From the IMG/VR virus record IMGVR_UViG_3300033145_003080, positions 85,038 through 149,037 of that record: DNA of 64,000 nt, one strand, 5' to 3'. This document shows positions 10,428-54,970 of the stretch, one piece after another. The stretch is from a virus. The first letter of the stretch is position 1, and every line of letters begins with the position of its first letter. A program made the translations under genes and the position numbers. The notes beneath the pieces are model-generated. The model made no database searches. It saw only the letters and a program-made list of their open reading frames with translations, and was not told the DNA's origin.

Positions 10428-11615
10428 ATGAACAATATCTACGACGATAAACAGCTACAAGAACGGAATCAGAGTGCTCCCACAGCTCTGCCCACTTCGG
10501 GGATTGCCGATCCTGATGTGTCTTTTGATACTAAGCTGAATTGTCATGTGCGAGTGGGTAATACTGGTTATAGTACCAGGCCGAATGTCGGTAAACATAC
10601 TATATTTGTTTTAAATGTTAATGGTAAGCCATTAACCCCAACAACACCAGCAAAAGCAAGAAAGTTATTAAAAGGAGGTAAAGCAAAAAAATACTGGAGT
10701 AAGTTTAACACATTTGGTATTCAACTTGTTGATAAAACAAGAGAAGAAATACAGAAAACTGTACTTGGATATGATCCAGGTAGTAAATTTGAAGGCGTTT
10801 CTGTGGTTTGTGGTGATGAGAATAATTTGTCTGTAAAATTAAATTTACCTAATAAAACAAATATTGTTAATAAATTAAAAGAGCGCAGACAAATCAGAAG
10901 GAATAGAAGATATAGAAAATGTCGTAGAAGAAAAGCAAGGTTTTCAAATAGAAAAAGGAATGGTTTTATCGCCCCATCTCAATTAGTTATAGTGAATTCA
11001 AGATTAAAAATTTTAAAAGAATTTTGCAATATTTACCCAATATGCAATGTAGCTATGGAAAATATAAAGTTTAACCATCTAAAATATAGATGGGGTAAGA
11101 ATTTTTCAACAATGGAAATTGGCAAACAAAAAATAAGAATTTTTTTCAAAAATAGAAATATTGAAATATTTGAATATGATGGTTTTAAAACATCTAAAAT
11201 AAGAAAAAAATATGGATATAAAAAGACATTTATAAAAAGTGCAGATCATTTTACATCACATTGCTCTGATTCATTATCCCTTGCTATTGAGATAAGCTGT
11301 AAAAAAAGAATACATGAAGGATTGTTTCTTATAGTTGATGACACTTATCGTTGTGTAAAAAGGAAACTTCATGACAGACAACCATCAATAGGTGGGATAA
11401 GAGAAAAATATTCTCATGGAAATGTAAATGGTGTTAAAAAAAGTATAATTATTGGCGCAAAAAACGGCAATATAGGACAATTGTGTGGCGAAACGAATGG
11501 TCGTTTTAGATATTATGATTTGGATGGTAAACGAAAAATAACAAAAACAATATCTTGGATAAATAACCAATTTAAAACAAATACAATAAAAGAAGAACAA
11601 TTTTACGCGGCATAA
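10428..11615 (+). CDS. isrB: IsrB-like RNA-guided nuclease (RuvC only)
   Basis: The protein has the IscB/IsrB order of parts. A PLMP-type N-terminal motif lies at ~59-87 (IFVLNVNGKPLTPTTPAKAR, then KLLKGGKAK). RuvC-I is GYDPGSKFEG with Asp116. An Arg-rich bridge helix runs 152-176 (ERRQIRRNRRYRKCRRRKAR). RuvC-II is VAMENIKF with Glu211. RuvC-III is SHCSDSLSLA with Asp281. No HNH domain lies between RuvC-II and III, which separates IsrB from IscB. At 395 residues it is of IsrB size. It would be expected to nick DNA guided by its omega RNA. Residues 1-57 probably overlap the RNA; GTG at 10548 or 10554 could be the true start. All RuvC acidic residues are present, so it may be active. Confidence 0.85.
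   Translation: MNNIYDDKQLQERNQSAPTALPTSGIADPDVSFDTKLNCHVRVGNTGYSTRPNVGKHTIFVLNVNGKPLTPTTPAKARKLLKGGKAKKYWSKFNTFGIQLVDKTREEIQKTVLGYDPGSKFEGVSVVCGDENNLSVKLNLPNKTNIVNKLKERRQIRRNRRYRKCRRRKARFSNRKRNGFIAPSQLVIVNSRLKILKEFCNIYPICNVAMENIKFNHLKYRWGKNFSTMEIGKQKIRIFFKNRNIEIFEYDGFKTSKIRKKYGYKKTFIKSADHFTSHCSDSLSLAIEISCKKRIHEGLFLIVDDTYRCVKRKLHDRQPSIGGIREKYSHGNVNGVKKSIIIGAKNGNIGQLCGETNGRFRYYDLDGKRKITKTISWINNQFKTNTIKEEQFYAA
10440..10602 (+). ncRNA. Candidate omega RNA scaffold overlapping the 5' end of isrB
   Basis: This stretch can fold into a string of short hairpins: CAGAG/CTCTG (10470-10474 with 10486-10490), CCC/GGG (10491-10493 with 10500-10502), an alternative GGAT/ATCC (10501-10504 with 10510-10513), CTGGT/ACCAG (10564-10568 with 10575-10579) and CCGA/TCGG (10581-10584 with 10588-10591). 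IscB/IsrB genes are known to be preceded by a structured guide RNA (the HEARO or omega RNA) whose 3' end abuts or overlaps the gene. The predicted first ~55 residues of the protein do not look like the nuclease, which fits an RNA read through by chance. The guide would lie at its 5' end, roughly 10330-10440. The hairpins were read by eye only. Confidence 0.45.
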
Positions 11616-13311: not shown

Positions 13312-16300
13312 ATGTTTGATTTTTGGGCTTTTTTGAGAAAGAAATGGTCTGAATATTCGAAGTCTAGGGGCCAGAAGGGTACTATGATTGATGACCTTGC
13401 TGTAAAACCGGCCGGGCTGATCTTGGCTAATTTCTACAACGCCCTTGCTGGACAGAGAAGGGTTAATAACATCTCGCTTTGGAAAACAATGACCGATGAA
13501 GAGCTAAACTTTTTTGGGAATAAATTTTTTACTAAGAGGATAATGGGTGATTTCTCTATTGGATCGGTGCGTGTTTACTTCAATGAGAAAAAAAATATCG
13601 AACTTTCTACTATAGCCCGGTTTGTCTCAAATCGAGGTTTGCAGTACCGCCCTATTCAGCCTGGAAAGATAGCAGGTAGCTCATTTAGCAGTTCAACAGA
13701 TAGGATAGCACTTTATCATATCGACATACCAATTATTGCAGTGTCAAAAGGTGATGAGTACAACACTGATGCGAATGAAATAGTCCAACTTATTAATATC
13801 GACTTTACTTATCATTCAGCAACAAATCCTGAAGATATAATTCGCGGATCAAAATATGAGACAAATGAAGAATATTTCAATCGTCTTGTTTATACTGTGA
13901 ATGACCGCAGTATGATGAATAAGAAGAGTATGATGGTTCTTCTTCCCGAATTTTTTCCAGTTATTAATGCAATGTATATAGCAGGTGCTGGTGACCGATA
14001 TATGCAAAGAGATTTAATTGCCGGCGTTGACCTGTCCCTTCCTTATAAAGAAGCAACCTATCTTGGCAAGTTAAAAGGTGAGAATATAGTTAAACATATT
14101 GGTTTTTATGGTATATTCCCACCGAATGTAGGAAGCCTTCAGTCGAACAGGTACTGGGGGCCACATTCAGCGGTATCAGAATACCGCTATCCCCTAACTA
14201 TAGAACAATCATCATCTGCATTCAGCCCTGAACAGACAGATCCGCGGCTAAACGATCCTGCATTCCTTGGGTTTCCACTTGACCAGGAGTGTGTCGATAA
14301 TATGTATAAAGGTCTTTACTTTAACGATTATAAACGATTTATGGAAGTAAGAACTGAAGATCTGTTTAATATTGTTGATGAAGAGGTTGGGTTTACACCA
14401 GTGCTACCAGATGTAACATGGAAGTTTGGTGCGCATGGACTTATGCCGGGTAATGTTGGCAGGCTTGCTGACAATGTGCAGAATATAAATGTGGTTAGTT
14501 TTTATGACACTGAAATCAGACTTGCCGGTGGTGCGTATAATTCAATTTCTGTCGGCAAGGACATTCTCAAACGTACCGGGGTAAAATTAACCGGTTCTTT
14601 TATTTGTCCCGAACCTGCTGATGAAAATTCTCCAATACTGAATAGCAATCTGCAAATTATGATTGGTGGTATAAATGATTTAAATCTTGTTGATGGATAT
14701 ACTGGTGTCGGGTTTGGCATTAGAATGACTGATATATATGATGAAGGTGATATTGATGTGCCGAATGCAGTTATATATTTTGCCCATAATGAAAAGTATG
14801 GGACCGCCCAGGTTTATGCGACTGATTATGATATCAGTGACCATATTTCAGTTTCAGATATAGGAGCCCTTGCCGAAAAAGAATTTAGAATTCAGCCGAA
14901 TATCGAATACGAATTTGAGTTTATTATTTATGATGATTTAAGATTATCGCTTTATTTCAACAAGACAAGTGAAAAGCAACCGTCAGATCCATATGAAAAA
15001 GAGAATGAATTTCATTTCGAATTGCCTCGTAAAGTTTTGGGAATATTTTCTGACGAAAGCAGACAGGGTTTATTGTCAACGAGCAATATACGATATGGTA
15101 CAACAATGAAGGCGACACTTGACACAGAGTCTCTCGTTTCAGAGGATATATGGCGAATAAATGACTTAAAAGCTTTTGATATGAATCCATCGAAAGCAAT
15201 GGCGTTATATGCTATAAATATGGATGATATAGAAAGCCCCATATCTGTCTTTCTTCGAGCATTTGGTTCGAGTGCTATCGATAATGCCCAGGCTGATGGC
15301 TACCAGGTGTTCTTATGGGATAAGGAGGTTCAGACAATAGCCTCTGGGTCGTCAGAGCTTACTCGAGGAGGTTGGGCTGAAGCAAACGGTATATCCAACC
15401 CAGATAGTTCAAAAAGTTCTGCCCTTGGTCTTTTAAGGCATGACATACAAAACATGGATCGGTACCTGGTTGATAGTAAGTTCGGCAAAAACATTTTTAT
15501 CATGATATTAACCACAGGTGTTTCGAAAGGGTCAATACGATATAATAGAGATATTCGAGATGATGTCCATTCTTTTCTCCGTGTTGATTATATAAAAGCT
15601 GAGAGTATGAATATAGCATCTTATCACGCAAATAATAAAGCAGACATACACCTTGCAACCCTTAATAATTCGGAAGAGTATGAAGTCGTTACTACAACTC
15701 TCACCAAACAACCTAATGATACTTATTTTGAAATGAGTCTCGAGAATAAATGTAAAATGCCTGTGGTTGAGATGGTGTCTGTAACTATAGGTACCACTGT
15801 TAGTGACACTGAAACTCTTGCAGAAACTGAATATTCTATGATTGACTCAGACGTTTTATTGCTTAATTCCTCAAAAGAAAAGAAGCATATAACTTTGAAT
15901 GAATCTGATGCTGATACAATAACAGTCGAATATAGAACGTATCCGGAAATTGAACGTATTCAGGACTTTTTTGAAAGCTCTATATATCAAAAAATTTATG
16001 GCGACTTTCTCATTAAACACAAAATGCCATGCGATCTTGATTTTACAATTTTTTATACCGGAGATATCAACGATGATCAATTGATAACGGAAATAAGAAA
16101 ATATGTTGATGATAATATTGATGGGGTGTTTTCTATACGGAATTTTATCAGCTATCTCTATAATGAGGAGCTGGTTAACAATATCAAGGAACCTGTCGAG
16201 ATATCGTATACTAAATGGAACGATGAGTGGGAGCAAGAAACGGGAACCTTTACCGATAAGCTCCCAATAAGGCCAATCGGTTTTTTTAGGATTGTAAGCC

Positions 16301-16320
16301 TAAACGTGCAGAAGTTATAA
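13312..16320 (+). CDS. Baseplate wedge-like protein (gp6/baseplate J-like), 1002 aa
   Basis: Downstream of an AAAGGATG site. Residues ~1-290 resemble the N-terminal half of wedge proteins: TMIDDLAVKPAGLILANFYN, then a beta segment with IDIPIIAVSKGDEYNTDANE, and a helix-rich block (ETNEEYFNRLVYTVNDRSMM, then VLLPEFFPVINAMYIAGAGD). A beta-sandwich-like insertion (~390-590, GVKLTGSFICPEPADENSPI) looks like a concanavalin-type domain. The C-terminal part returns to a wedge-like end (INDDQLITEIRKYVDDNIDG). It should form the inner wedge ring with the adjacent 147-residue protein. The family call is moderate. Confidence 0.6.
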   Translation: MFDFWAFLRKKWSEYSKSRGQKGTMIDDLAVKPAGLILANFYNALAGQRRVNNISLWKTMTDEELNFFGNKFFTKRIMGDFSIGSVRVYFNEKKNIELSTIARFVSNRGLQYRPIQPGKIAGSSFSSSTDRIALYHIDIPIIAVSKGDEYNTDANEIVQLINIDFTYHSATNPEDIIRGSKYETNEEYFNRLVYTVNDRSMMNKKSMMVLLPEFFPVINAMYIAGAGDRYMQRDLIAGVDLSLPYKEATYLGKLKGENIVKHIGFYGIFPPNVGSLQSNRYWGPHSAVSEYRYPLTIEQSSSAFSPEQTDPRLNDPAFLGFPLDQECVDNMYKGLYFNDYKRFMEVRTEDLFNIVDEEVGFTPVLPDVTWKFGAHGLMPGNVGRLADNVQNINVVSFYDTEIRLAGGAYNSISVGKDILKRTGVKLTGSFICPEPADENSPILNSNLQIMIGGINDLNLVDGYTGVGFGIRMTDIYDEGDIDVPNAVIYFAHNEKYGTAQVYATDYDISDHISVSDIGALAEKEFRIQPNIEYEFEFIIYDDLRLSLYFNKTSEKQPSDPYEKENEFHFELPRKVLGIFSDESRQGLLSTSNIRYGTTMKATLDTESLVSEDIWRINDLKAFDMNPSKAMALYAINMDDIESPISVFLRAFGSSAIDNAQADGYQVFLWDKEVQTIASGSSELTRGGWAEANGISNPDSSKSSALGLLRHDIQNMDRYLVDSKFGKNIFIMILTTGVSKGSIRYNRDIRDDVHSFLRVDYIKAESMNIASYHANNKADIHLATLNNSEEYEVVTTTLTKQPNDTYFEMSLENKCKMPVVEMVSVTIGTTVSDTETLAETEYSMIDSDVLLLNSSKEKKHITLNESDADTITVEYRTYPEIERIQDFFESSIYQKIYGDFLIKHKMPCDLDFTIFYTGDINDDQLITEIRKYVDDNIDGVFSIRNFISYLYNEELVNNIKEPVEISYTKWNDEWEQETGTFTDKLPIRPIGFFRIVSLNVQKL

Positions 16321-45699: not shown

Positions 45700-47784
45700 A
45701 TGGCACATGAAGGAATGACAGGTCCGGGAACTCCTTCGGGGGCGAGTGGTAGTGGAAGTAATCTTAAAATTGCTTTTACTCGAGGATCTTTAAAATATGA
45801 TAGTCCATTTATGGACATGACCAGTACATTTATTCCTAAAAGTATAAAAGGGCTTCTCAAATTTATAGCTGCAAATGTTTTCAGTGATGGGTTTGTCTCC
45901 CAATGCATTACTAAACTGTCAGAATATCCAATTACCGATTTGATTTATGATGAAGAGCGTCAGTCTGAAATCAAAGATGATAAAAAAATCGATAAATGGA
46001 AAAAAATACTCGAAAAACATCTTAAAATAATCAGGTCAATGAAACAGGCTGGTATGGATTTTTATGCATATGGCAATGCTATTATATCTATAAATTACCC
46101 ATTCAAAAGATTCTTTACATGCCCAAAGTGTGATAATGAATTTGCTGCAGACTCAATCAAATGGATATTTAAAAATTACAAATTTCAAGGTGAATGTCCA
46201 AAATGCCATAGTGAAGAAAGGTTAAAAGCCCGTGATAAAAATACAAAAGAACTTGATAAATTCAATCTTATCCATTGGGATTTGATATACATAGATATTA
46301 AATACAACACTATTAGCGGTGACCATTTCTATTTTTATCGAATACCACCACAAATGGAGCTTGCCATAAAACGTGGCGACAGAGATATAATAAATACAAC
46401 CAGGTTAGAAGTTATTGATGCTGTAAAGAAAAAGAAGCCACTTAAATTGATGGCAGATAATGTATTTCATCTTAAAAGGTCTGGCCCACAATATATCATA
46501 TCTTCAGAACGTGGTTGGGGTATCCCTGCAATCATGCCTGTTATGAAAGATATCTTCCACACGAAGATACTTAAAAAAGGCAATGAGATGATAGCATTTG
46601 ATCACATTGTTCCTTTGAGGATTTTGTTTCCTGTGGGGACTGGCGATATAAGTCCCCATGCTACGGTTAACCTGTCTGGGTGGAAAACTAAAATTGAGGA
46701 TGAGATTAGAAAATGGAAAGCTGATCCGAATTATATCTCAGTTGTGCCACTTCCGTTGGGGAATGTTAATTTTAGCGGAGATTCTAAGATTTTAAGCGTT
46801 ACCCCTGAAATAAAAGCCACCGAAGATTCAATAATGACCGGTATAGGAATTATACCGGAAATTATAAGAGGTGGAGCATCATGGTCTGGAAGTAATGTTT
46901 CTCTTAGGGTTGTTGAAAACAGTTTTTTAAACCATCGTAATGACATGCATGACTATCTCGAATTTGTTGTAGATAATATATCAAGATATCTTGATATGCC
47001 AAAGATAGATGTTAGAATGTCTGATTTTAAAATGGCTGATGATTTGGCAAAAAAGAAAATGGTTGTTGAGGCGGCTATGGGCACCCCTTCAAAATCATTA
47101 ATATCAAAGTCGACTGTTATAAAAGAACTTGGTTTTGATCCAGAGCTCGAGTATGAATCAAAGCTAAAAGAACTGAAGAGAAATATTGAACTTATGATTG
47201 AAGAAATGGAGGGTGCTTCTACAGCCCATGGGGCAGCATCAGTTGTTAATGCGATGTATCAGGCTGATGCTGAAGCGGCAAACAGAGATAGGCTCGAAAC
47301 GCACGACAGAGAGTCTCAGGGCAAGAAGGAGGAGATAGACATGCAAATACATGAAGAAAATGCTACTGAGATAAAAAATGAAGTTGCAATGCTTGCTCAA
47401 AAGAAGGGTGTGGATGCTGACCAAATAGCGACTCCTACTCTTATTTTAATGTTTACGCAACGATTTGCCGTTCTTGCAACGACCAATAAAGATGAATTTA
47501 AAATGCGTATGTTAATAATGAAGAATGTCATGCCCGCACTTTATCAGGAAGTGTATAATAATCTTAAGGAATTAAATCTTATTGAAGCTGATTTACAACC
47601 AAATCTCGAAGTTACTCAAAAAATGACTCCGGGAGAAATACCTGTATATTCACAAGGCGAGATAGGGGCAGACACCCCACCATCCATATCTGAAGTGGGA
47701 GCTGAACCAAAAGGTATAAATAAAGATTACAACAAACAACTTCCTGATGCAAAACCTCCAGTTTCGCAGAATGCTCCAATTTAA
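45700..47784 (+). CDS. Portal protein with a zinc-ribbon insertion (694 aa)
   Basis: ATG follows AAAGGATTAAGTA. The phage portal fold is suggested by MKQAGMDFYAYGNAIISINY (~105-124), the central stem segment (KATEDSIMTGIGIIPEIIRG, then GASWSGSNVSLRVVENSFLN) typical of portal clip/stem regions, and the C-terminal helical crown and charged tail. A zinc-ribbon-like insertion (C-P-K-C about 22 residues before C-P-K-C-H) lies at ~141-169. The portal is the dodecameric DNA entry channel of the head. No terminase or capsid gene follows in this window; they may lie elsewhere. I am fairly confident of the portal call, from general portal features. Confidence 0.75.
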   Translation: MAHEGMTGPGTPSGASGSGSNLKIAFTRGSLKYDSPFMDMTSTFIPKSIKGLLKFIAANVFSDGFVSQCITKLSEYPITDLIYDEERQSEIKDDKKIDKWKKILEKHLKIIRSMKQAGMDFYAYGNAIISINYPFKRFFTCPKCDNEFAADSIKWIFKNYKFQGECPKCHSEERLKARDKNTKELDKFNLIHWDLIYIDIKYNTISGDHFYFYRIPPQMELAIKRGDRDIINTTRLEVIDAVKKKKPLKLMADNVFHLKRSGPQYIISSERGWGIPAIMPVMKDIFHTKILKKGNEMIAFDHIVPLRILFPVGTGDISPHATVNLSGWKTKIEDEIRKWKADPNYISVVPLPLGNVNFSGDSKILSVTPEIKATEDSIMTGIGIIPEIIRGGASWSGSNVSLRVVENSFLNHRNDMHDYLEFVVDNISRYLDMPKIDVRMSDFKMADDLAKKKMVVEAAMGTPSKSLISKSTVIKELGFDPELEYESKLKELKRNIELMIEEMEGASTAHGAASVVNAMYQADAEAANRDRLETHDRESQGKKEEIDMQIHEENATEIKNEVAMLAQKKGVDADQIATPTLILMFTQRFAVLATTNKDEFKMRMLIMKNVMPALYQEVYNNLKELNLIEADLQPNLEVTQKMTPGEIPVYSQGEIGADTPPSISEVGAEPKGINKDYNKQLPDAKPPVSQNAPI

Positions 47785-47923: not shown

Positions 47924-47948
47924 ATGAATTGTGCCTTTTTTTAACCGT

Positions 47949-47977
47949 TTGACATTTCAATACAATTATACTATATT
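47949..47977 (+). promoter_or_regulatory. Sigma-70-type promoter of tnpB element 2
   Basis: TTGACA (47949-47954) is a perfect -35 and TATATT (47972-47977) a near-perfect -10, with a 17-base spacer. Transcription would start about 47984, almost on the GTG start codon at 47985, so the mRNA could be leaderless. Confidence 0.65.
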
Positions 47978-47984
47978 AAATACC

Positions 47985-49097
47985 GTGAAAACAATAAGAA
48001 CCATAAAACTTAAATTTAATGGAAAGCATAAGGCCAATAATATTCTTCCAAATTGGATTAATGCTTGCAACTGGCTCTCTGAGATAGTTTTTGATTCCAA
48101 AGAAATTAATTCTAATCGACTTTCTCAAGCTTATTACAAAATTGTTCGTGAAAAATTTAAACTTCCATCACAATTGACTTGTACGCTTTTTCGTACAGTA
48201 TCAGCTACATATAAAACTCAAAAAGCTCAAAAAATGTGGAACCTTTGCATATACAAAAGGAAGTCTATCCCAATTGTTTGGAAAAGAGATTTTGCTCGAA
48301 CCAAAAAAGGTGTCACTCTTTGGGGTGATATTATTATTTTTGACGACTCAAGAGCAATTCCAGATCGCTGGAAAGACTCTAAAATATCCCTTAAAGATGG
48401 ACAGTGGTTTTTTAATCTTTCTTATGAAATTGATATTCCGGAACCAAAAATAAAAGGAACAATAATTGGAGTAGACCAGGGAATAAAAAGACTTTTTGTA
48501 GCTTCTGAATCTAATGGTGATAAACTGTTTTACAAATCTAACCACCTTAATCATAAACTTGCTAATATCAGAAATCATAGATCTAAAATACAAGCGGTTG
48601 GAACCCGTTCTTCAAAAAGACTTCTCAAAAGAATGTCTAAACACGAGGCTTCCGTAACCGAGCATGCAGTGCATGTTGCTTCTAAAAGACTTGTATTTTG
48701 GGCTAATTTTATAGGAGCAAGGAAAATTGTTTTTGAGGATTTGTCTAATATACGAAAATCTTCTTTGAGTAAAGGAAAGCAACTTCGCAGTAAAGTTAAT
48801 TGCTGGCCTTATGGCATGTTTACATATTTTGTAACATACAAAGCTGCTGCTTTTGGTATTGCTACTGAAAAAGTTTCTCCAAAGAATACTTCTCGTATGT
48901 GTCATAAGTGTGGACATATTGACAAATCCAATCGAAATGGTTTTACCTTTAAATGTCTTTCTTGCGGTTATACCGCAGATTCAGATTGGAACGCCAGTAA
49001 GAATATTGCTGGCCGATCAATGTCTATCGGGTTAAACTCAATAGACACAGGGAGTTATAAATCCCCTGAAAAACAGACTATTTTTAGCCATGTTTAA
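47985..49097 (+). CDS. tnpB: TnpB RNA-guided endonuclease (IS605 OrfB family)
   Basis: GTG at 47985 gives a typical start (VKTIRTIKLKFNGKHK) and 370 residues; upstream residues back to 47931 would cross the promoter and are unlikely. RuvC-I is IGVDQGIKRL (Asp164), RuvC-II is IVFEDLSNI, the zinc ribbon has MCHKCGH and FKCLSCGYTADSD, and RuvC-III is SDWNASKNIA. All catalytic residues are present. It is only distantly similar to the other TnpB in the window (different zinc ribbon and N-terminus), so the two were acquired separately. The 3' end and right hairpin probably encode part of the guide RNA. Confidence 0.93.
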   Translation: MKTIRTIKLKFNGKHKANNILPNWINACNWLSEIVFDSKEINSNRLSQAYYKIVREKFKLPSQLTCTLFRTVSATYKTQKAQKMWNLCIYKRKSIPIVWKRDFARTKKGVTLWGDIIIFDDSRAIPDRWKDSKISLKDGQWFFNLSYEIDIPEPKIKGTIIGVDQGIKRLFVASESNGDKLFYKSNHLNHKLANIRNHRSKIQAVGTRSSKRLLKRMSKHEASVTEHAVHVASKRLVFWANFIGARKIVFEDLSNIRKSSLSKGKQLRSKVNCWPYGMFTYFVTYKAAAFGIATEKVSPKNTSRMCHKCGHIDKSNRNGFTFKCLSCGYTADSDWNASKNIAGRSMSIGLNSIDTGSYKSPEKQTIFSHV

Positions 49098-49158: not shown

Positions 49159-49539
49159 TTAATTTTCATGATTTTCATCCATGCCTTTGACAGGTTGCCC
49201 AGGCATTTCTCCTTTTCCAGTTACATACTTCAAAAACCACTCTTCATTTTCAGGAAACTCTTTATAGGCAATATATAATTTTGCGAGTTGTTCAGCACTT
49301 TCCGTGGAATACGGATTTTTGAACATAGGTAGATTAACAAATATGAACATCGTTTTCTCTTTCATATCAATATTAATCCTGTTTCCCGATTTTGTATCAA
49401 TTTCAACATACCCCACTTTTGGGGGCTCAATGCTTGAATCATCATGAAAGCATCGTAAGATATCGATATCAGACATATCAATAAAAGACTCTACTTTCTG
49501 ACTTTGATGCATACTAATAACGCGCAACATTGCTCCCAT
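49159..49539 (-). CDS. Unknown small acidic protein after the Ub-like cassette (126 aa)
   Basis: Last gene of the - strand block. ATG at 49539 follows AAAGGA by 12 bases; a later Met is possible. Mixed alpha/beta with HDDSSIEPPKVGYVEIDTKS, IDMKEKTMFIFVNLPMF and a helical ESAEQLAKLYIAYKEF, and a flexible Gly/Pro/His tail. A hairpin at 49569-49587 separates it from the ubiquitin-like gene, so it may be expressed less. No family recognised; a link to the cassette is only by position. Confidence 0.5.
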   Translation of the reverse strand: MGAMLRVISMHQSQKVESFIDMSDIDILRCFHDDSSIEPPKVGYVEIDTKSGNRINIDMKEKTMFIFVNLPMFKNPYSTESAEQLAKLYIAYKEFPENEEWFLKYVTGKGEMPGQPVKGMDENHEN

Positions 49540-49622: not shown

Positions 49623-50090
49623 CTAATTGCCTTTTACCTTTTGAGAAAGAATAATCCTTAACACATCACCGGTCGGACGTTCAAGCTTTTCAGAAAGCTC
49701 AACCTTGCGAGTTCCGATACGGTATTCATATGCAGGGCTACCGTCAGCATGGGTAAAAGTTTTTTTCTTATCCATGTCAAGTTGGTCAACAACTTCCTGG
49801 ATCGTCATACCAGGAGTAGCGGGTAATTTCTCAATTCCACCGCCTGCACCCATCCGAATAAGTTGCACTTCGAATGGTTCATCGTTTCCTTTGGTCTTTG
49901 TTCCAAGAAAGACCTTCTCATTATTATAAAGCCGGGTCGTTTTTTGTACCTCTACACCATTACGGGTTATGGTGTAATTTTCAGGAAGCGTGACGTTAGC
50001 AGCGTCAAACAGCCCCTGAACAGTTGGGTTGTCAGAAATCTCAAGGTCTTTGATCTCTTTGCCCATCTGAATGAGTTTTACGCAAATCAT
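49623..50090 (-). CDS. Tandem beta-grasp ubiquitin-like protein (155 aa)
   Basis: ATG at 50090 is chosen; a TTG at 50099 lies too close to AAGGG. Two similar units of the beta-grasp (Ub/MoaD/ThiS-like) type are seen. Unit 1 (1-69) has VKLIQMGKEIKDLEIS, a helix TVQGLFDAANVTL, then YTITRNGVEV and YNNEKVFLGTKTKGN. Unit 2 (73-155) has VQLIRMGAGGGIEKL, a helix TIQEVVDQLDM, YEYRIGTRKVEL and GDVLRIILSQKVKGN. Each unit ends in K-x-K-G-N (65-69 and 151-155). In Ub-like modifiers a C-terminal Gly is adenylated by E1; here a one-residue Asn follows it and would need trimming by the JAMM peptidase nearby. It is the expected modifier of the cassette. The beta-grasp call is from pattern, not search. Confidence 0.7.
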   Translation of the reverse strand: MICVKLIQMGKEIKDLEISDNPTVQGLFDAANVTLPENYTITRNGVEVQKTTRLYNNEKVFLGTKTKGNDEPFEVQLIRMGAGGGIEKLPATPGMTIQEVVDQLDMDKKKTFTHADGSPAYEYRIGTRKVELSEKLERPTGDVLRIILSQKVKGN

Positions 50091-50130
50091 ATATAGCAAA
50101 AGCCCTTTCGTAAATTAATTGTTAATTGAA

Positions 50131-50892
50131 TTAATTTTGCTGAACTATGTACTGAGGTTCTGCCCCGTCGAAAGTTCTATAATAAAATGATTCAGGGTAC
50201 AACGAAAAGTGAACCTCATTCCACATTTTCGACTGATTTGCTTTTGTATCTTTTTCATCAGTCCCGTACTTTCTTTCGAAATGCTCCAAAAGCCTTCCGC
50301 ATGCTAAGCTTGCAAGAAATGTAGTGGTCGTAATTATTGATGCGCTCGCCCCACATGCACTGACATTTGCTTCTTCATCGCTATACAGTGTCTTCTTCCA
50401 CTCTTCAACTTGGTCTCCATCGTGAGGATTAAATGCGTAAACCCGACCGTCACGCAGTCCCATCCGTGTCTCGATTACCAAATCTGTATTAAATGAAAAT
50501 TTTAAACATTTATCAAATATTTCTTTTCTTGACGCCATTGTATCGGTAAGAATGAAAACGTAAGTTGATTGAACACTTTTCTGATCGGTCACTATCTCTT
50601 TGTGGGTTTCAATCTCAAAATTACACTTGCGTTTTATAATCTCATTTAAAGCAACAACCTTTGGTTTTCCAACATGAGCAGGCTCATATATTTGATTACA
50701 AAGATTGTGCTCTTCGATAATATCGTCATCAAATGCTTTTAATACTCCTTGTTCCTGTGCAGTATTGCCCCAACCAAGCTGGGATAAATACAATGCGACA
50801 TGGCTTCCAGTAGCTCCGACCCCAATAACGGAGACGCTTTTATTTTTAATATTTTTTGGATTTATAAGACCCAATTGACGTATATAATCCAT
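50131..50892 (-). CDS. E1/ThiF-like adenylating enzyme (253 aa)
   Basis: ATG at 50892 begins one base after the JAMM gene stop with GGAAG upstream. The Rossmann nucleotide loop is VIGVGATGSHVALYLSQLG (G24, G26, G29). Then come FDDDIIEEHNLCNQIY (D55-D57, N63) and GKPKVVAL, the usual E1 order of D-x-D, N-L-x-R-Q and G-x-x-K-A. D-x4-R appears as DTMASR (D117, R122). Cys180 in SACGASASIITTTTFLASLA sits where ThiF/MoeB enzymes carry a loop and helix after the active cysteine. The R of N-L-x-R-Q is Asn here. The enzyme should use ATP to adenylate the Gly end of the Ub-like partner. It resembles the ThiF-related proteins of PRTRC-type cassettes in its F-D-D-D segment. Confidence 0.88.
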   Translation of the reverse strand: MDYIRQLGLINPKNIKNKSVSVIGVGATGSHVALYLSQLGWGNTAQEQGVLKAFDDDIIEEHNLCNQIYEPAHVGKPKVVALNEIIKRKCNFEIETHKEIVTDQKSVQSTYVFILTDTMASRKEIFDKCLKFSFNTDLVIETRMGLRDGRVYAFNPHDGDQVEEWKKTLYSDEEANVSACGASASIITTTTFLASLACGRLLEHFERKYGTDEKDTKANQSKMWNEVHFSLYPESFYYRTFDGAEPQYIVQQN

Positions 50893-50893
50893 A

Positions 50894-51877
50894 TTATTCT
50901 TCCCACATATCACCATGGGCAAACTGACCAAACTGACCAAATTGATAAATTTCCTGATCTATATCATCCAATAAAGAGGCGACCTCTTCGGCATTAAGTA
51001 TTTCATTATCATCAGTTCGCACATCGGTTTGTTTAGTATCATTTGGGTTTAAAAAGCTCAATTGCTTTACACCCCCCGTTTTCCTTTTGTTAGTAACTGT
51101 AAAACCCCTCTTGTCACTAACCGAATAGCCCTTCTTGTTATTAGCTGAATAGCCCTCTCGGCCGTAATACGGTGGCTTTTCCTTGGGTATATTTACTTCT
51201 TTCAGTTCTCTGACTTTGGCTATTATATTTTCCATTTCTTCGTCTATTGACATTATTGTCATAACATCAATCATACGACGTTTGGCAGTTTCTTCAGTAT
51301 ATCCTAAAGCAAGGATTTCCTGAATTCGATCTAATTTTGTAACCATAATAGAAGCAACATCGTCTTCTTCAACTTCCCAATTGAGATTGTCGAATCGAAG
51401 CTGGCTATTATAATCAAAAAACGATACGCTTATCTCATCACCACTACAAATAGCTCTTATTAAATATGAATTTGTAGAGTTCATTCTTTCAATTGCTTGA
51501 GCCTCATCCTGTCCTGATGGAGAGGTGCTTCCGTGAGGGTGTTTATGTCCCCAAAACCTTATTTTAGCAATATCATCGACTCTATTTTTTTCTATCAGCC
51601 AATTCATTATTGCCGTTTCACCTTCTGGGGATATCTCGCATGTTCCCGATGTAGCAAGGTCATGCATTGGATAGAACACTTCACGGATGAAATGTTCCAT
51701 TGCCTCACCCTCCCCTCTCTCATCGACTATCGCATAAAACCCAACCTCTGTATCATGCTCCCCCATCAACGCCCTAATCCATTTAAGCGCTGTTGATCCG
51801 AACACCACTTTCGGGGGCTTCTTGTGCACATTGGTTAGCATTCTATAAGTTGGTTTTCGTTTATCAGGTTTGAACAT
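50894..51877 (-). CDS. JAMM/MPN metallopeptidase (JAB-like), 327 aa
   Basis: ATG at 51877 is seven bases after the previous stop; an in-frame TTG at 51904 overlaps the upstream gene and is not preferred. The JAMM motif is complete: Glu44 in TEVGFYAI, then GHKHPHGSTSPSGQDE with H111-x-H113-x7-S121-x2-D124. Such zinc peptidases remove or mature ubiquitin-like proteins. The rest (~150-327) is helical with three short repeats of GYSxxxKKG-like phrases (GREGYSANNKKGYSVSDKRG) and an acidic C-terminus. It sits between the E2-like and E1-like genes. I am confident in the catalytic domain; the Ub-like target is inferred from context. Confidence 0.88.
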   Translation of the reverse strand: MFKPDKRKPTYRMLTNVHKKPPKVVFGSTALKWIRALMGEHDTEVGFYAIVDERGEGEAMEHFIREVFYPMHDLATSGTCEISPEGETAIMNWLIEKNRVDDIAKIRFWGHKHPHGSTSPSGQDEAQAIERMNSTNSYLIRAICSGDEISVSFFDYNSQLRFDNLNWEVEEDDVASIMVTKLDRIQEILALGYTEETAKRRMIDVMTIMSIDEEMENIIAKVRELKEVNIPKEKPPYYGREGYSANNKKGYSVSDKRGFTVTNKRKTGGVKQLSFLNPNDTKQTDVRTDDNEILNAEEVASLLDDIDQEIYQFGQFGQFAHGDMWEE

Positions 51878-51884
51878 ATTTATA

Positions 51885-53009
51885 TTACCCTTCAGTAGGT
51901 GCAACCGGCCAAAATTTCAAATGACTGCCCCACGAGTCTTCGGGATTCGGAGATTTAATAAATCTGATTAAAGATTCGGTTATGTATGAAAGGTCTCTTG
52001 AAACTATCGCATCAAAAATATGCTCAAAAGCTGTTCCATAACAAGAATTACCATTACTTTTGATATGACCACATTCCCAAATCCGACCGGAATTTGAAGC
52101 ATATCGATGTGTAAGATTTCTTATCGATATTGCCCCTTTGTCTTTAGTTGGGTTAGGGGAAAATAAAGCTTCAAGACGCACACCAAGCCTCATGCTCCCT
52201 ATAAACCTACGATGGCCATCCCAATTATCATCAGTTACCAATGGGTGGGTAACAATAACGACTTCAACATCTGTAAAGTAAACACGTTCAACAGGTTCGA
52301 ATTCGTCTGCCAATCTGTTCGCCTGATCAACAATATTAATAATAGCAGGACTGTTCTCAGAAAGTTGTTGAGTTGCTTCCTCAATTTTTCTTTTCAAAGC
52401 TGTCGCAGTATTGAAATGGTTATTAAACTGCCTGATAGATTCATCAAGCTGTTTTGTGATATTTATACTTTCATCGCCGACAATTTGTGCCACTGTAGAA
52501 TACACATTATTATTATTTTCGATTACAGTTTCCTGTACTTCTGCCGGCCCAATCATAATGTTATGAGGTGGTGGTTCTTGCACTACTTGGGGTTCCTGTG
52601 TTTCTTGTGCCTCTTCTCGAGGCCGCTGTGGTATCTCCTCCGCTTGACGAGGCTCTTCATCAGCAATTTCTGCAGCTCCGTCTTCCATTAGGGCTGCTTC
52701 ATCCTCATGAGTATTGTCAAGATTTATGCCATCATGTCCGGCTTCAGCTTCGACAGGCGCATCCCCGGGTTCCGCCGTCTCTTCTTCGCCGACATCAACA
52801 ACAACTGAACTGCCTGTTGTTATGAAATTAACAACTCCATCATATCTCTCTGACAATATCTCACGAGCTTCTTCAAGTCTGGGTTCATCTATGCCGACTT
52901 GAATCGTATGATCAGTACCTTCATTGATTTCGTTCATGATATTGAACAGCGCTTCTGGTATAGTATCCATAGTGAAGCCCAATGCAGGTTTAATGAACAA
53001 TGTTAACAA
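51885..53009 (-). CDS. E2-like conjugating protein B (374 aa)
   Basis: A TTG at 53009 has AGGAGG seven bases upstream and is preferred; ATG at 52970 is an alternative. Residues ~75-155 are a low-complexity acidic/Pro linker. From ~185 a helical part leads into an E2-like domain: TDVEVVIVTHPLVTDD, then HIKSNGNSCYG with His315 and Cys323, then RDLSYITESLIRFIKSPNPE and SWGSHLKFWP. The H-x3-[DN]-G-x2-C-x-G motif and the following 46 residues align without gaps to the E2-like protein A. The motif resembles the HPN...G-x-C of ubiquitin E2 enzymes. It should carry the Ub-like protein as a thioester at Cys323. The E2 call is from motif spacing. Confidence 0.65.
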   Translation of the reverse strand: MLTLFIKPALGFTMDTIPEALFNIMNEINEGTDHTIQVGIDEPRLEEAREILSERYDGVVNFITTGSSVVVDVGEEETAEPGDAPVEAEAGHDGINLDNTHEDEAALMEDGAAEIADEEPRQAEEIPQRPREEAQETQEPQVVQEPPPHNIMIGPAEVQETVIENNNNVYSTVAQIVGDESINITKQLDESIRQFNNHFNTATALKRKIEEATQQLSENSPAIINIVDQANRLADEFEPVERVYFTDVEVVIVTHPLVTDDNWDGHRRFIGSMRLGVRLEALFSPNPTKDKGAISIRNLTHRYASNSGRIWECGHIKSNGNSCYGTAFEHIFDAIVSRDLSYITESLIRFIKSPNPEDSWGSHLKFWPVAPTEG

Positions 53010-53026
53010 ATAAACCCTCCTATTAA

Positions 53027-54970
53027 TTAAATGTGAACTGGTATCGCTTCTGCAAGCGTTTTATCAAACTTCTCTTCTGCTTTAGCAATCTGATGCATCA
53101 CTTCATACAAAGCATTGTCATTATTATTTTGGCTCAATGCAACTTCTTCAGAAACTTCAGGCCACTTATTAACTTTTTCACCTGCCGAGTCTGACGTATT
53201 TGCTGATTCCAAAAATAATAATATTTGATATATTAATTCAAACAAATTGCGTCTTTTGTACGCATCTGTCATACCGCTCGCAAGATTTCCATGACAAATA
53301 TGGCCATCCTGCCATGCATGTGGCGCATTCATTATTGAACCGTTTGAAGAAGTTTTTATTTGATGTTTGGTATTTTTTATATTCACAGTCTGCTCTTGAT
53401 TGTAAGAGTTGTTATGCATCCCAAGGGTAATATGGAACGTTCCTATATCATGCCAGTGGCTGGTTCTTTCGTCCTGCGCGTATATATTATGAGTATATAC
53501 ATGGACAATATTGTCTTTGACAGTTACCATACTTATTTTATCAAGAGCTAATGTTTCATCGTAATTTTTATTTGCCTTCTCACGCTCATCAATAAGAAAT
53601 TTCTCTTCATTAAAATATTGTATCTGGTCATGGAAGCGTTGAAACATTTTGGCATGCTCAAGTGCCTGTTCGAGATGCTCTTTATATTTTTTTTGATGCT
53701 CATCACGCTTATCTTTTATTTGGTCGGTTATTACTTTTGAGCTACTTATGGCAAAATTAATATATTCCTCTCTATTGTTTTCATGTCTTTTTTCTGTATA
53801 TTTAGCATCAATTTTAACAAGTTCTGTATATGGTAAAGAGTTTCCAAACCTTTTGATAAATTCTTCATAGGCAATTTTATAAAAAGTCTTATTTTTTCCT
53901 GTAGAATAAGGAACAAGAAAATAAATCATACATCGGTCTTTTACTGCCCATATTACATTGGTAATAGTATCTTTATAAATACCATCATATTTGTATATAG
54001 GAGAATTTTTTCGGTTATTTATAACCTCATCAATTTTAAGCCTTTTTGCCTCTGGGTTTAATTCAAGGTCTCTCCTAATTTTATTTATTATATCATTCTC
54101 ATGACACGAGCCAGTAATACAATATATCTCATCAATTTCGTAACCAAAACATGATGCTTTTGCGTTCTCAGTGAGATTAAAAGTAGAGCCTGGCAATGCG
54201 TGTATAAAAAAGAGAACATCTTTTGACAAACCAGCCATATTAAATTTATTTTTCAGAGCAGTGATTAAATTTGTTGTATGGTCCACATTGTTAATATAGA
54301 ATATGCTTTTGCCGATTGATTTTGCAATATTGGCAATTTCTTCAAACTGCTGTTCGCTAAAATTGATATCATATATTACAACTCTGACCTCTTCTTCTTC
54401 ATAAACAGCATCCTGTGTAATATTTGTGTAGGTTCCATAATGCTCTTTCAAATCTTCGAACAAGGCATTAACCATAGCGAGTTTTTGTGAAACTTTCTTT
54501 TCTTCTTCAATTGGCACCTCAATTGGAACCGCTTCTTCTTCTATAGCCGCATCGTCACTATCGACAGTTACCGGAGTTGCTTCAGCCGGCGCATTACACT
54601 CATTTAAAATAGCAGCTTCGATATCTGCAAGAACAAACCTTACACCACTTGGGCCTATTGCGAATATATTTAGATATGTATCTGTTGCTTTTGCAACTTC
54701 TCCTGTAAGGTCGTTTAACAAATTGTCATCAACCCAATATCGATGAATTGCTATTTTCATACCATGAACAGTCGAATCTTGTATGTTAGGCTTAAGGGCT
54801 TCATCTTTATCAAGATTTTGCCATAGATCAAAAACGGTATTAAATGCTATGTTGAATCCATCCTGATCAACAGCAGCGACGACAGAACCGTTCTCTAAAC
54901 CATATTCAAAAAATTCGATCTTGATAAGTTTGGCGAGCCAAATTTCAACAAAACCATAAGTTTGATTCAT
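53027..54970 (-). CDS. E2-like conjugating protein A (647 aa)
   Basis: A strong AAGGAGGA site precedes the ATG. The N-terminal ~100 residues are mixed alpha/beta. A Glu-rich linker (about 130-160) and a long middle domain (~185-420, VRVVIYDINFSEQQFEEIAN) follow, then a coiled coil (KDKRDEHQKKYKEHLEQALE). The C-terminal domain has NIVHVYTHNIYAQDE and HAWQDGHICHGN with His551 and Cys559, then RNLFELIYQILLFLESANTS and SAGEKVNKWPEV. The E2-like motif H-x3-D-G-x2-C-x-G matches protein B with the same downstream spacing. The middle domain, of unknown fold, could select the target. It is the first gene of the cassette after a candidate promoter. Confidence 0.65.
   Translation of the reverse strand: MNQTYGFVEIWLAKLIKIEFFEYGLENGSVVAAVDQDGFNIAFNTVFDLWQNLDKDEALKPNIQDSTVHGMKIAIHRYWVDDNLLNDLTGEVAKATDTYLNIFAIGPSGVRFVLADIEAAILNECNAPAEATPVTVDSDDAAIEEEAVPIEVPIEEEKKVSQKLAMVNALFEDLKEHYGTYTNITQDAVYEEEEVRVVIYDINFSEQQFEEIANIAKSIGKSIFYINNVDHTTNLITALKNKFNMAGLSKDVLFFIHALPGSTFNLTENAKASCFGYEIDEIYCITGSCHENDIINKIRRDLELNPEAKRLKIDEVINNRKNSPIYKYDGIYKDTITNVIWAVKDRCMIYFLVPYSTGKNKTFYKIAYEEFIKRFGNSLPYTELVKIDAKYTEKRHENNREEYINFAISSSKVITDQIKDKRDEHQKKYKEHLEQALEHAKMFQRFHDQIQYFNEEKFLIDEREKANKNYDETLALDKISMVTVKDNIVHVYTHNIYAQDERTSHWHDIGTFHITLGMHNNSYNQEQTVNIKNTKHQIKTSSNGSIMNAPHAWQDGHICHGNLASGMTDAYKRRNLFELIYQILLFLESANTSDSAGEKVNKWPEVSEEVALSQNNNDNALYEVMHQIAKAEEKFDKTLAEAIPVHI

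What the first reader, a model, noticed from the sequence alone, without database searches (positions are those of the whole stretch)
49623..54970. Phage-encoded ubiquitin-like conjugation cassette: two E2-like proteins, JAMM peptidase, E1 and tandem Ub-like protein
Five neighbouring - strand genes carry the parts of a Ub-like system in one operon (gaps of 17, 7, 1 and 40 bases): E2-like A, E2-like B, a JAMM peptidase with full E and H-x-H-x7-S-x2-D, an E1/ThiF-like enzyme, and a modifier with two beta-grasp units. Bacterial Ub-like systems with E1, E2, JAB and Ub-like genes are known from PRTRC-type cassettes and from Bil-type anti-phage operons, mostly in bacteria and plasmids. A complete set inside a phage replication/takeover block, with two E2-like partners, is unusual. 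It may modify host or phage proteins, or counter a host Ub-like defence. Domain calls are from motifs seen here and family knowledge; the function is inference.
Basis: partly seen in the sequence, partly recalled or inferred. Interest (0 to 1): 0.96.

Follow-up and report, generated by a model that had tools for sequence, protein, structure and literature searches.

The report
Phage-encoded ubiquitin-like protein-tagging gene cassette
A large phage carries a complete set of genes resembling the ubiquitin tagging machinery of our own cells (tag, activating enzyme, two transfer enzymes and trimming protease), and related sets turn up in dozens of other phages, including the gut phage crAss001 where they were annotated only as "thiamine biosynthesis", so phages may routinely tag proteins during infection, though the target is unknown.

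Summary
Five minus-strand genes (gaps 17, 7, 1 and 40 bases) encode two paralogous proteins with C-terminal UBC-like (E2) domains, a JAMM peptidase with complete motif, a small E1 with a UBA5/Atg7-like cysteine, and a tandem beta-grasp modifier whose two units both end in Lys-Gly-Asn. Profiles and AlphaFold models support each part: modifier hits SAMP2, its fold hits ISG15/di-ubiquitin; JAB profile hits only JAMM proteases; E2 profile and fold hit canonical E2s, weakly but ranked first. Two close relatives keep the five-gene order; all genes are under purifying selection. The cassette is not a one-off: of 64 non-redundant E1 loci, nearly all from phages, 58 have JAB (55 within 100 bp), at least 43 an E2, at least 40 a Ubl; crAss001, Flavobacterium and Xanthomonas phages have versions. 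Half of the distinct short Ubl ends carry KGN; the two records lacking JAB have a bare Gly-Gly end, suggesting that JAB trims the modifier. By tested features it is not Bil, PRTRC or CBASS (small E1; invariant His where E2s have the HPN Asn). I found no report of it in the held library. Conjugation, target and role in infection are inferred, not shown.

The parts
53027..54970 (-). E2-like A (647 aa): N-terminal region of unknown fold, coiled-coil-like helices, C-terminal UBC-like domain about residues 434-613; motif APH551-x7-C559-H-G (Cys codon 53294-53296)
   Evidence: E2 profile hits; AF2 pLDDT 88.5; Foldseek PDB ranks 1-9 all E2s; conserved in L007/L010
51885..53009 (-). E2-like B (374 aa), paralogue of A; UBC-like domain about residues 197-374, motif CGH315-x7-C323-Y-G (Cys codon 52041-52043)
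   Evidence: homology to E2A 4e-14; E2 profile 5e-45; alignment A4
50894..51877 (-). JAB/JAMM metallopeptidase (327 aa from ATG; ORF from TTG at 51904 is 336 aa); in ORF numbering E53, H120-x-H122-x7-S130-x2-D133, motif at 51506-51547
   Evidence: alignment A6; all 45 PDB hits of the profile are JAMM/MPN+ proteases; Prok-JAB 5e-4 for the crAss001 relative
50131..50892 (-). E1-like / ThiF-fold activating enzyme (253 aa), single adenylation domain, candidate catalytic Cys180 (codon 50353-50355)
   Evidence: Pfam ThiF 3.4e-19; PDB hits UBA5, UBA1, MoeB, ThiF, Atg7; A1 invariant C180
49623..50090 (-). Modifier (155 aa), two beta-grasp units; unit 1 ends KGN at 49884-49892, unit 2 ends KGN at 49626-49634 just before the stop
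   Evidence: Ubl profile; SAMP2 6e-5; AF2 + Foldseek: ISG15, di-Ub, FAT10; DNA
49159..49539 (-). 126-aa protein of unknown function just downstream, kept in L007 and L010 (32-38% identity); possible sixth gene

Best explanation
This is a self-contained phage pathway for Ub-like protein conjugation. Inferred steps: (1) the modifier is made as a two-unit precursor whose units end in Lys-Gly-Asn; JAB trims the residues past the reactive terminus, may split the two units, and can remove the tag from targets. (2) The E1, probably a homodimer, adenylates the trimmed C-terminus and takes it on Cys180 as a thioester, as the small non-canonical E1s UBA5/Atg7 do. (3) E2A (Cys559) and/or E2B (Cys323) accept it, with the invariant His in the place of the HPN Asn, and transfer it to lysines of target proteins. 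Two E2s alongside two fused Ubl units suggest one E2 per unit or an E2 heterodimer (as in Ubc13-Mms2, but with both cysteines kept). Because the cassette lies in the DNA-metabolism gene block, and its crAss/Flavobacterium relatives lie next to primase, UDG, exonuclease and resolvase genes, the most likely targets are phage or host proteins of DNA metabolism during infection. Shown here: sequence, order, conservation and predicted fold. Not shown: catalysis, processing and target.
For: Order and starts; two relatives with the whole cassette and purifying selection; E1 profile hits E1s including UBA5 and Atg7, with invariant Cys; JAB profile hits only JAMM/MPN+ proteases; Ubl profile hits only SAMP2-type modifiers (6e-5) and its model's 50 best matches are all tandem ubiquitins/ISG15/FAT10-like (6e-7); the E2 profile's only PDB hits are ubiquitin E2s aligned on HPN-x7-C and Foldseek ranks 1-9 are E2s. 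KGN in 14 of 28 distinct short Ubl C-termini, and at both window units. Records without JAB (complete genome PhiXhv-15; 206-kb L031 contig) have Ubls ending in a bare Gly-Gly, as expected if JAB exists to trim the extension. Neighbours.
Against: E2 matches are weak in absolute terms (profile E 0.47-1.7; Foldseek E 0.05-0.2, TM at most 0.52). The invariant Asn after Gly is unexplained if cleavage is simply after Gly, and some relatives end in NAA/DNA instead of Gly, so the terminal chemistry may be unusual. The MoeB Arg73 equivalent (NLxRQ) is Asn/Gly in these E1s. The two JAB-less lineages may be sisters, so the JAB/Gly-Gly link may be one event. The crAss-type E2 (hhalign P 0.004) and Ubl (no hit) assignments are tentative. 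No E3 is recognised in the window. No data on targets.
Confidence: 0.78

Rival explanations
1. Sulfur-carrier system: the Ubl is a ThiS/MoaD/SAMP2-like sulfur carrier, E1 activates it for thiolation of tRNA, nucleotides or DNA, and JAB trims the precursor (as Mec+ does for CysO); the 'E2' is an accessory protein.
For: Closest sequence relatives of the Ubl are SAMP2, which in archaea has both roles (own knowledge); E1 is ThiF/MoeB-like; GenBank records call relatives thiamine biosynthesis proteins.
Against: An E2-like protein with invariant His and Cys lies beside E1/JAB in most loci, twice in this clade; no rhodanese, cysteine desulfurase or thiolase among annotated or family-scanned neighbours; a tandem Ubl is unknown to me among sulfur carriers.
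Confidence: 0.12
2. Cargo anti-phage defence: the cassette is a Bil-like system that the phage carries against competing phages, tagging their virion proteins. (This shares the conjugation chemistry of the best explanation and differs in the target.)
For: Same set of parts as Bil: tandem Ubl, E2, JAMM, E1 (Bil as described in PMC11354881).
Against: Lies in the conserved DNA-metabolism block, and in crAss/Flavobacterium phages keeps such neighbours, unlike typical defence cargo; no PADLOC or NCBIfam defence model above cut-off for E2, JAB or Ubl; E1 and E2 differ from BilD/BilB.
Confidence: 0.2
3. Counter-defence: the Ubl or JAB interferes with host Ub-like defences (Bil, CBASS Cap2/Cap3) as decoy or tag remover rather than running its own pathway.
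For: Hosts carry such systems (own knowledge; PMC10286901); a JAB could strip host tags.
Against: A decoy needs no E1 plus two E2s with conserved catalytic residues under purifying selection.
Confidence: 0.08

Closest known systems
Bil (BilABCD, ISG15-like) anti-phage operons
   Same: Same four activities; tandem beta-grasp modifier; JAMM exposing the modifier C-terminus (per PMC11354881)
   Different: BilD is a large E1 with inactive + active adenylation domains and a Cys domain; here one 253-aa ThiF-fold domain. BilB uses Cys138 with a downstream His (CEHH); here the invariant His lies 8 residues before the Cys, in the place of the HPN Asn. Two E2s, other gene order, borne by phages.
Iyer et al. 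2006 operon type 6d (I take PRTRC-type cassettes to be of this type)
   Same: Separate Ubl, JAB, E1-like and E2-like genes (PMC1779556)
   Different: 6d E2 lacks the upstream His and has one downstream; 6d Ubl is a small standalone protein with a conserved terminal Gly; 6d has an additional alpha-helical gene and a JAB with an extra N-terminal domain. Only a weak ThiF-level match to PRTRC_ThiF (39 bits against a cut-off of 145).
Iyer et al. 2006 type 6e (multi-Ubl; probably the Bub systems, PDB BubCD)
   Same: Ubl repeated 1-3 times in one protein, with JAB and E1
   Different: 6e mostly has JAB fused to E1 and a Cys-less RWD-like E2; here JAB and E1 are separate and both E2s keep Cys.
Type II CBASS Cap2/Cap3
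   Same: E1, E2 and JAB enzymes
   Different: Cap2 is an E1-E2 fusion and the modifier is the cyclase itself; no nucleotidyltransferase among the neighbours scanned. The E1 only partly matches Cap2-type models.
Archaeal SAMP2 / desampylase JAMM1
   Same: Ubl closest by sequence (6e-5); JAMM1 among JAB hits
   Different: SAMP2 is single-domain with a GG end and its pathway has no known E2 (own knowledge).
crAss001 gp79-76, FpV4 gp53-50, PhiXhv-15 loci
   Same: E1 homologues in phages with JAB and/or E2-like neighbours
   Different: One E2-like gene and a single Ubl-like unit (crAss/FpV4 type with long C-terminal tail; homology of those two parts tentative); PhiXhv-15 has no JAB and a GG end; annotated only as thiamine biosynthesis/metalloprotease/hypothetical.

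Membership tests
Ub-like conjugation pathway (functional kind) | E1-fold activator with ATP loop and catalytic Cys | tested here: met
   (but the Arg73 equivalent of MoeB is replaced)
Ub-like conjugation pathway (functional kind) | beta-grasp modifier | tested here: met
Ub-like conjugation pathway (functional kind) | UBC-fold E2 with active-site Cys | tested here: met
   (fold and profile matches weak but ranked first; Cys invariant)
Ub-like conjugation pathway (functional kind) | JAMM peptidase with E and HxHx7SxxD | tested here: met
Ub-like conjugation pathway (functional kind) | covalent conjugates on target proteins | not testable with these tools
   needs biochemistry / mass spectrometry
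Bil system | E1 with paired adenylation domains plus Cys domain | tested here: not met
   E1 is 253 aa, one ThiF domain; Bil description from PMC11354881
Bil system | E2 with Cys and downstream catalytic His (CEHH) | tested here: not met
   the invariant His is 8 residues upstream of Cys; Bil description from PMC11354881
Bil system | ISG15-like tandem modifier | tested here: met
PRTRC / type 6d | E2 without upstream His but with conserved downstream His | tested here: not met
PRTRC / type 6d | match to PRTRC family models over cut-off | tested here: not met
   TIGR03736 39 bits against cut-off 145; no PRTRC hit for the window's E2s, JAB or Ubl
CBASS type II | Cap2 E1-E2 fusion with a CD-NTase gene | tested here: not met
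   separate genes; no cyclase among neighbours scanned
Sulfur-carrier (ThiS/ThiF) system | rhodanese/desulfurase or cofactor genes nearby | tested here: not met
   none among neighbours scanned; several neighbours match nothing, so not a full exclusion

The most novel reading that the evidence does not exclude
Tailed phages have their own, phage-specific class of Ub-like conjugation systems, spread over crAss-like, Flavobacterium and jumbo phages and hardly present in cellular genomes. It uses an xPH-type E2 and a modifier ending in Lys-Gly-Asn whose Asn is part of the chemistry (cleavage signal or the activated residue), and it tags proteins of the replication takeover.
Probability: 0.4. Interest if true: 0.93.

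Novelty: new variant of a known kind. Interest (0 to 1): 0.83.

Why it matters
Ub-like conjugation in the prokaryotic world is known mainly as a host weapon against phages (Bil, CBASS). A class carried by phages themselves, with relatives in a cultured gut phage (crAss001) and in cultured Flavobacterium and Xanthomonas phages, would mean that phages use protein tagging offensively or for their own replication, and it can be tested at once in cultured phages. It would also correct many 'thiamine biosynthesis protein ThiF' annotations, and it supplies minimal E1/E2/JAMM/Ubl sets for studying how ubiquitin pathways evolved.

Tried and rejected
Direct family look-ups: E2A, E2B and the Ubl match nothing credible in Pfam, PHROGs, PADLOC or NCBIfam, so single-sequence annotation does not reveal them; the HhH-GPD, ZorA and linaridin matches are sub-threshold noise. 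tblastn with E2A, JAB and an L013-type E2 against 50,697 phage records found nothing; only E1 is close enough. Viral-contig scans with the E2A and JAB sequences alone gave no relatives; the profile route did. hhalign of the crAss-type Ubl against the KGN-type Ubl failed, and the crAss-type E2 gave only P=0.004 with the H/C-x-G motifs aligned, so membership of crAss phages rests on E1, JAB, gene order and motifs. A terminase search of the record gave nothing, so I do not name the phage's family or host. A plasmid search with E1 found one distant hit, which argues against a plasmid origin. No paper in the held library describes the phage cassette; subscription papers, among them the primary Bil paper and later E1/E2 surveys, were not readable, so an earlier description cannot be excluded.
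Full report
WHAT IS THERE. The window is bases 85038-149037 of a 149-kb IMG/VR virus record. Genes up to 47.8 kb, among them a baseplate wedge protein at 13312-16320, run on the + strand; from 49 kb on, a - strand block carries exonuclease/DNA polymerase-like, helicase, RNase H/exonuclease and VRR-NUC-like genes and ends in the five genes of the finding.

CONSERVATION. An E1 search of IMG/VR finds two close relatives, L007 (186-kb contig) and L008/L010 (208 kb), each with all five genes in order, preceded by the same exonuclease and VRR genes and followed by the same small gene. Identity: E1 83/80%, Ubl 79/75%, E2A 56-57%, E2B 59/52%, JAB 53-55%. Where it can be computed, dN/dS is about 0.1-0.2 for all five genes (synonymous sites near saturation for some) and no frame is broken. 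E2A and E2B are paralogues: window E2A hits the L008 E2B at 4e-14.

EACH PART. E1: ThiF family 3.4e-19; its profile finds MccB, UBA1, UBA5, MoeB, ThiF, Cap2 and Atg7 in the PDB. ATP loop, Lys78, Asp117 and Cys180 are invariant across six phage E1s. The Cys lies where UBA5/Atg7-type E1s have theirs (my reading of the motif, not a structural test). The Arg of NLxRQ (MoeB Arg73; residue list from PMC12355090) is replaced, which is odd and unexplained. JAB: E and HxHx7SxxD complete; the profile's 45 PDB hits are all JAMM proteases: AMSH, RPN11, CSN5, BRCC36, archaeal JAMM1. Modifier: two beta-grasp units; the family profile finds only SAMP2-type small modifiers in the PDB (6e-5); the AF2 model (pLDDT 77, placement of the units to each other unsure, pTM 0.48) matches linear di-ubiquitin, ISG15, FAT10 and similar tandem Ubls in all 50 best hits (E 6e-7). 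E2A/E2B: no family model matches. A profile seeded from phage E2s with HPHxxx(x)GxxCLG converges on these genes and some 50 others, nearly all beside E1/JAB. In 26 aligned domains only His, Cys and Gly of H-x7-C-x-G are invariant. The profile's only PDB hits, though not significant singly (E 0.47-1.7), are all ubiquitin E2s, with HPH-x7-C aligned on HPN-x7-C. The AF2 model (pLDDT 88.5) has helix, beta meander, Cys loop and helices, and its best nine PDB matches are all E2s (E 0.05-0.2, TM up to 0.52). Pfam UQ_con itself shows at 0.027 on a relative. In predicted viral structures the best matches are unnamed phage proteins.

SPREAD. Searching with the E1 profile returned 63 IMG/VR loci. Among 64 non-redundant E1 loci held (IMG/VR, GenBank phages, MAGs), 58 have a JAB, 55 of them within 100 bp of E1, 43 an E2 by profile and 40 a Ubl by profile. 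About ten crAss001/FpV4-type loci have, in the E2 and Ubl places, proteins with HSH...C-x-G and K-x-K-S-G motifs; their homology is probable (E2, P 0.004) or unproven (Ubl). A like search in 84,980 bacterial/archaeal genomes found four MAG contigs, all with the cassette, which may be phage sequence binned with bacteria. Both searches use a degenerate peptide pattern, so counts are lower bounds. The double E2 + tandem Ubl arrangement is seen only in the window, L007, L010, L011 and L012 (L031 has two E2s but one Ubl); on the E1 tree these rows fall on one side of a branch, support 81/95.

CLUES TO MECHANISM. (a) Fourteen of 28 distinct short Ubl C-termini read KGN plus 0-2 residues, and both window units end so; unit 1 is followed by a short variable linker (DE/VDE/AEE). 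(b) Complete phage PhiXhv-15 and the 206-kb L031 record have E1, E2 and Ubl but no JAB anywhere, and their Ubls end in bare SGG and RGG. That is what a trimming role for JAB predicts; but the two may be sister lineages, so it is perhaps one event. (c) Some lineages end NAA or DNA; the terminal chemistry may differ from the Gly rule. (d) Neighbours are DNA-metabolism genes here and in crAss001/FpV4, hinting at a role in replication or takeover rather than virion structure; this is inference.

COMPARISON. By tested features it is not Bil (single small E1; His before, not after, Cys), not PRTRC/6d (His position; model score 39 of 145 bits), not 6e/Bub (unfused JAB and E1, E2s keep Cys) and not CBASS (no fusion, no cyclase). 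It works like these: E1-E2-JAMM-Ubl. I therefore file it as a new, phage-borne variant of prokaryotic Ub-like conjugation systems. Prior description in papers I could not read is possible.

VERDICT.

Noticed in passing
window 47931-49097 +: TnpB-type RNA-guided nuclease gene (Cas12f1-like_TNB 1e-20, OrfB_IS605) between the cassette and the gene at 45700-47784; not seen at that place in relatives L007/L010.
   Followed up: partly
window 10428-11615 +: ORF with RRXRR domain (1.5e-41), typical of IscB; so the phage carries both an IscB-like and a TnpB-like gene.
   Followed up: no
L005:6954-8291 and 19 further loci (L032, L038, L039, L041-L045, L047, L049, L051-L053, L055, L057, L059-L062): A reverse transcriptase gene lies close downstream of E1 (best PADLOC match RT_II-A 5e-38 for L005); these E1s form one clade. 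The conserved E2-JAB-E1-RT neighbourhood is unexplained.
   Followed up: partly
L013:5541-6965, L015:1850-3232, L001:5322-8000: E2-like proteins with Cys-rich, zinc-finger-like C-terminal tails; possibly a built-in E3-like or substrate-binding part.
   Followed up: no
L002, L048, L054, L063 (upstream of the Ubl-like gene), L003/L004 (downstream of E1): Uracil-DNA glycosylase gene next to or near the crAss/Flavobacterium-type cassette.
   Followed up: no
L011:8804-9292, L012:8772-9263: Tandem Ubl-like proteins whose units end NAA/SAA instead of a glycine motif although JAB, E1 and two E2s are kept.
   Followed up: no
window 49159-49539 -: Small conserved gene of unknown function right after the modifier gene, 32-38% identical in L007/L010.
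   Followed up: no
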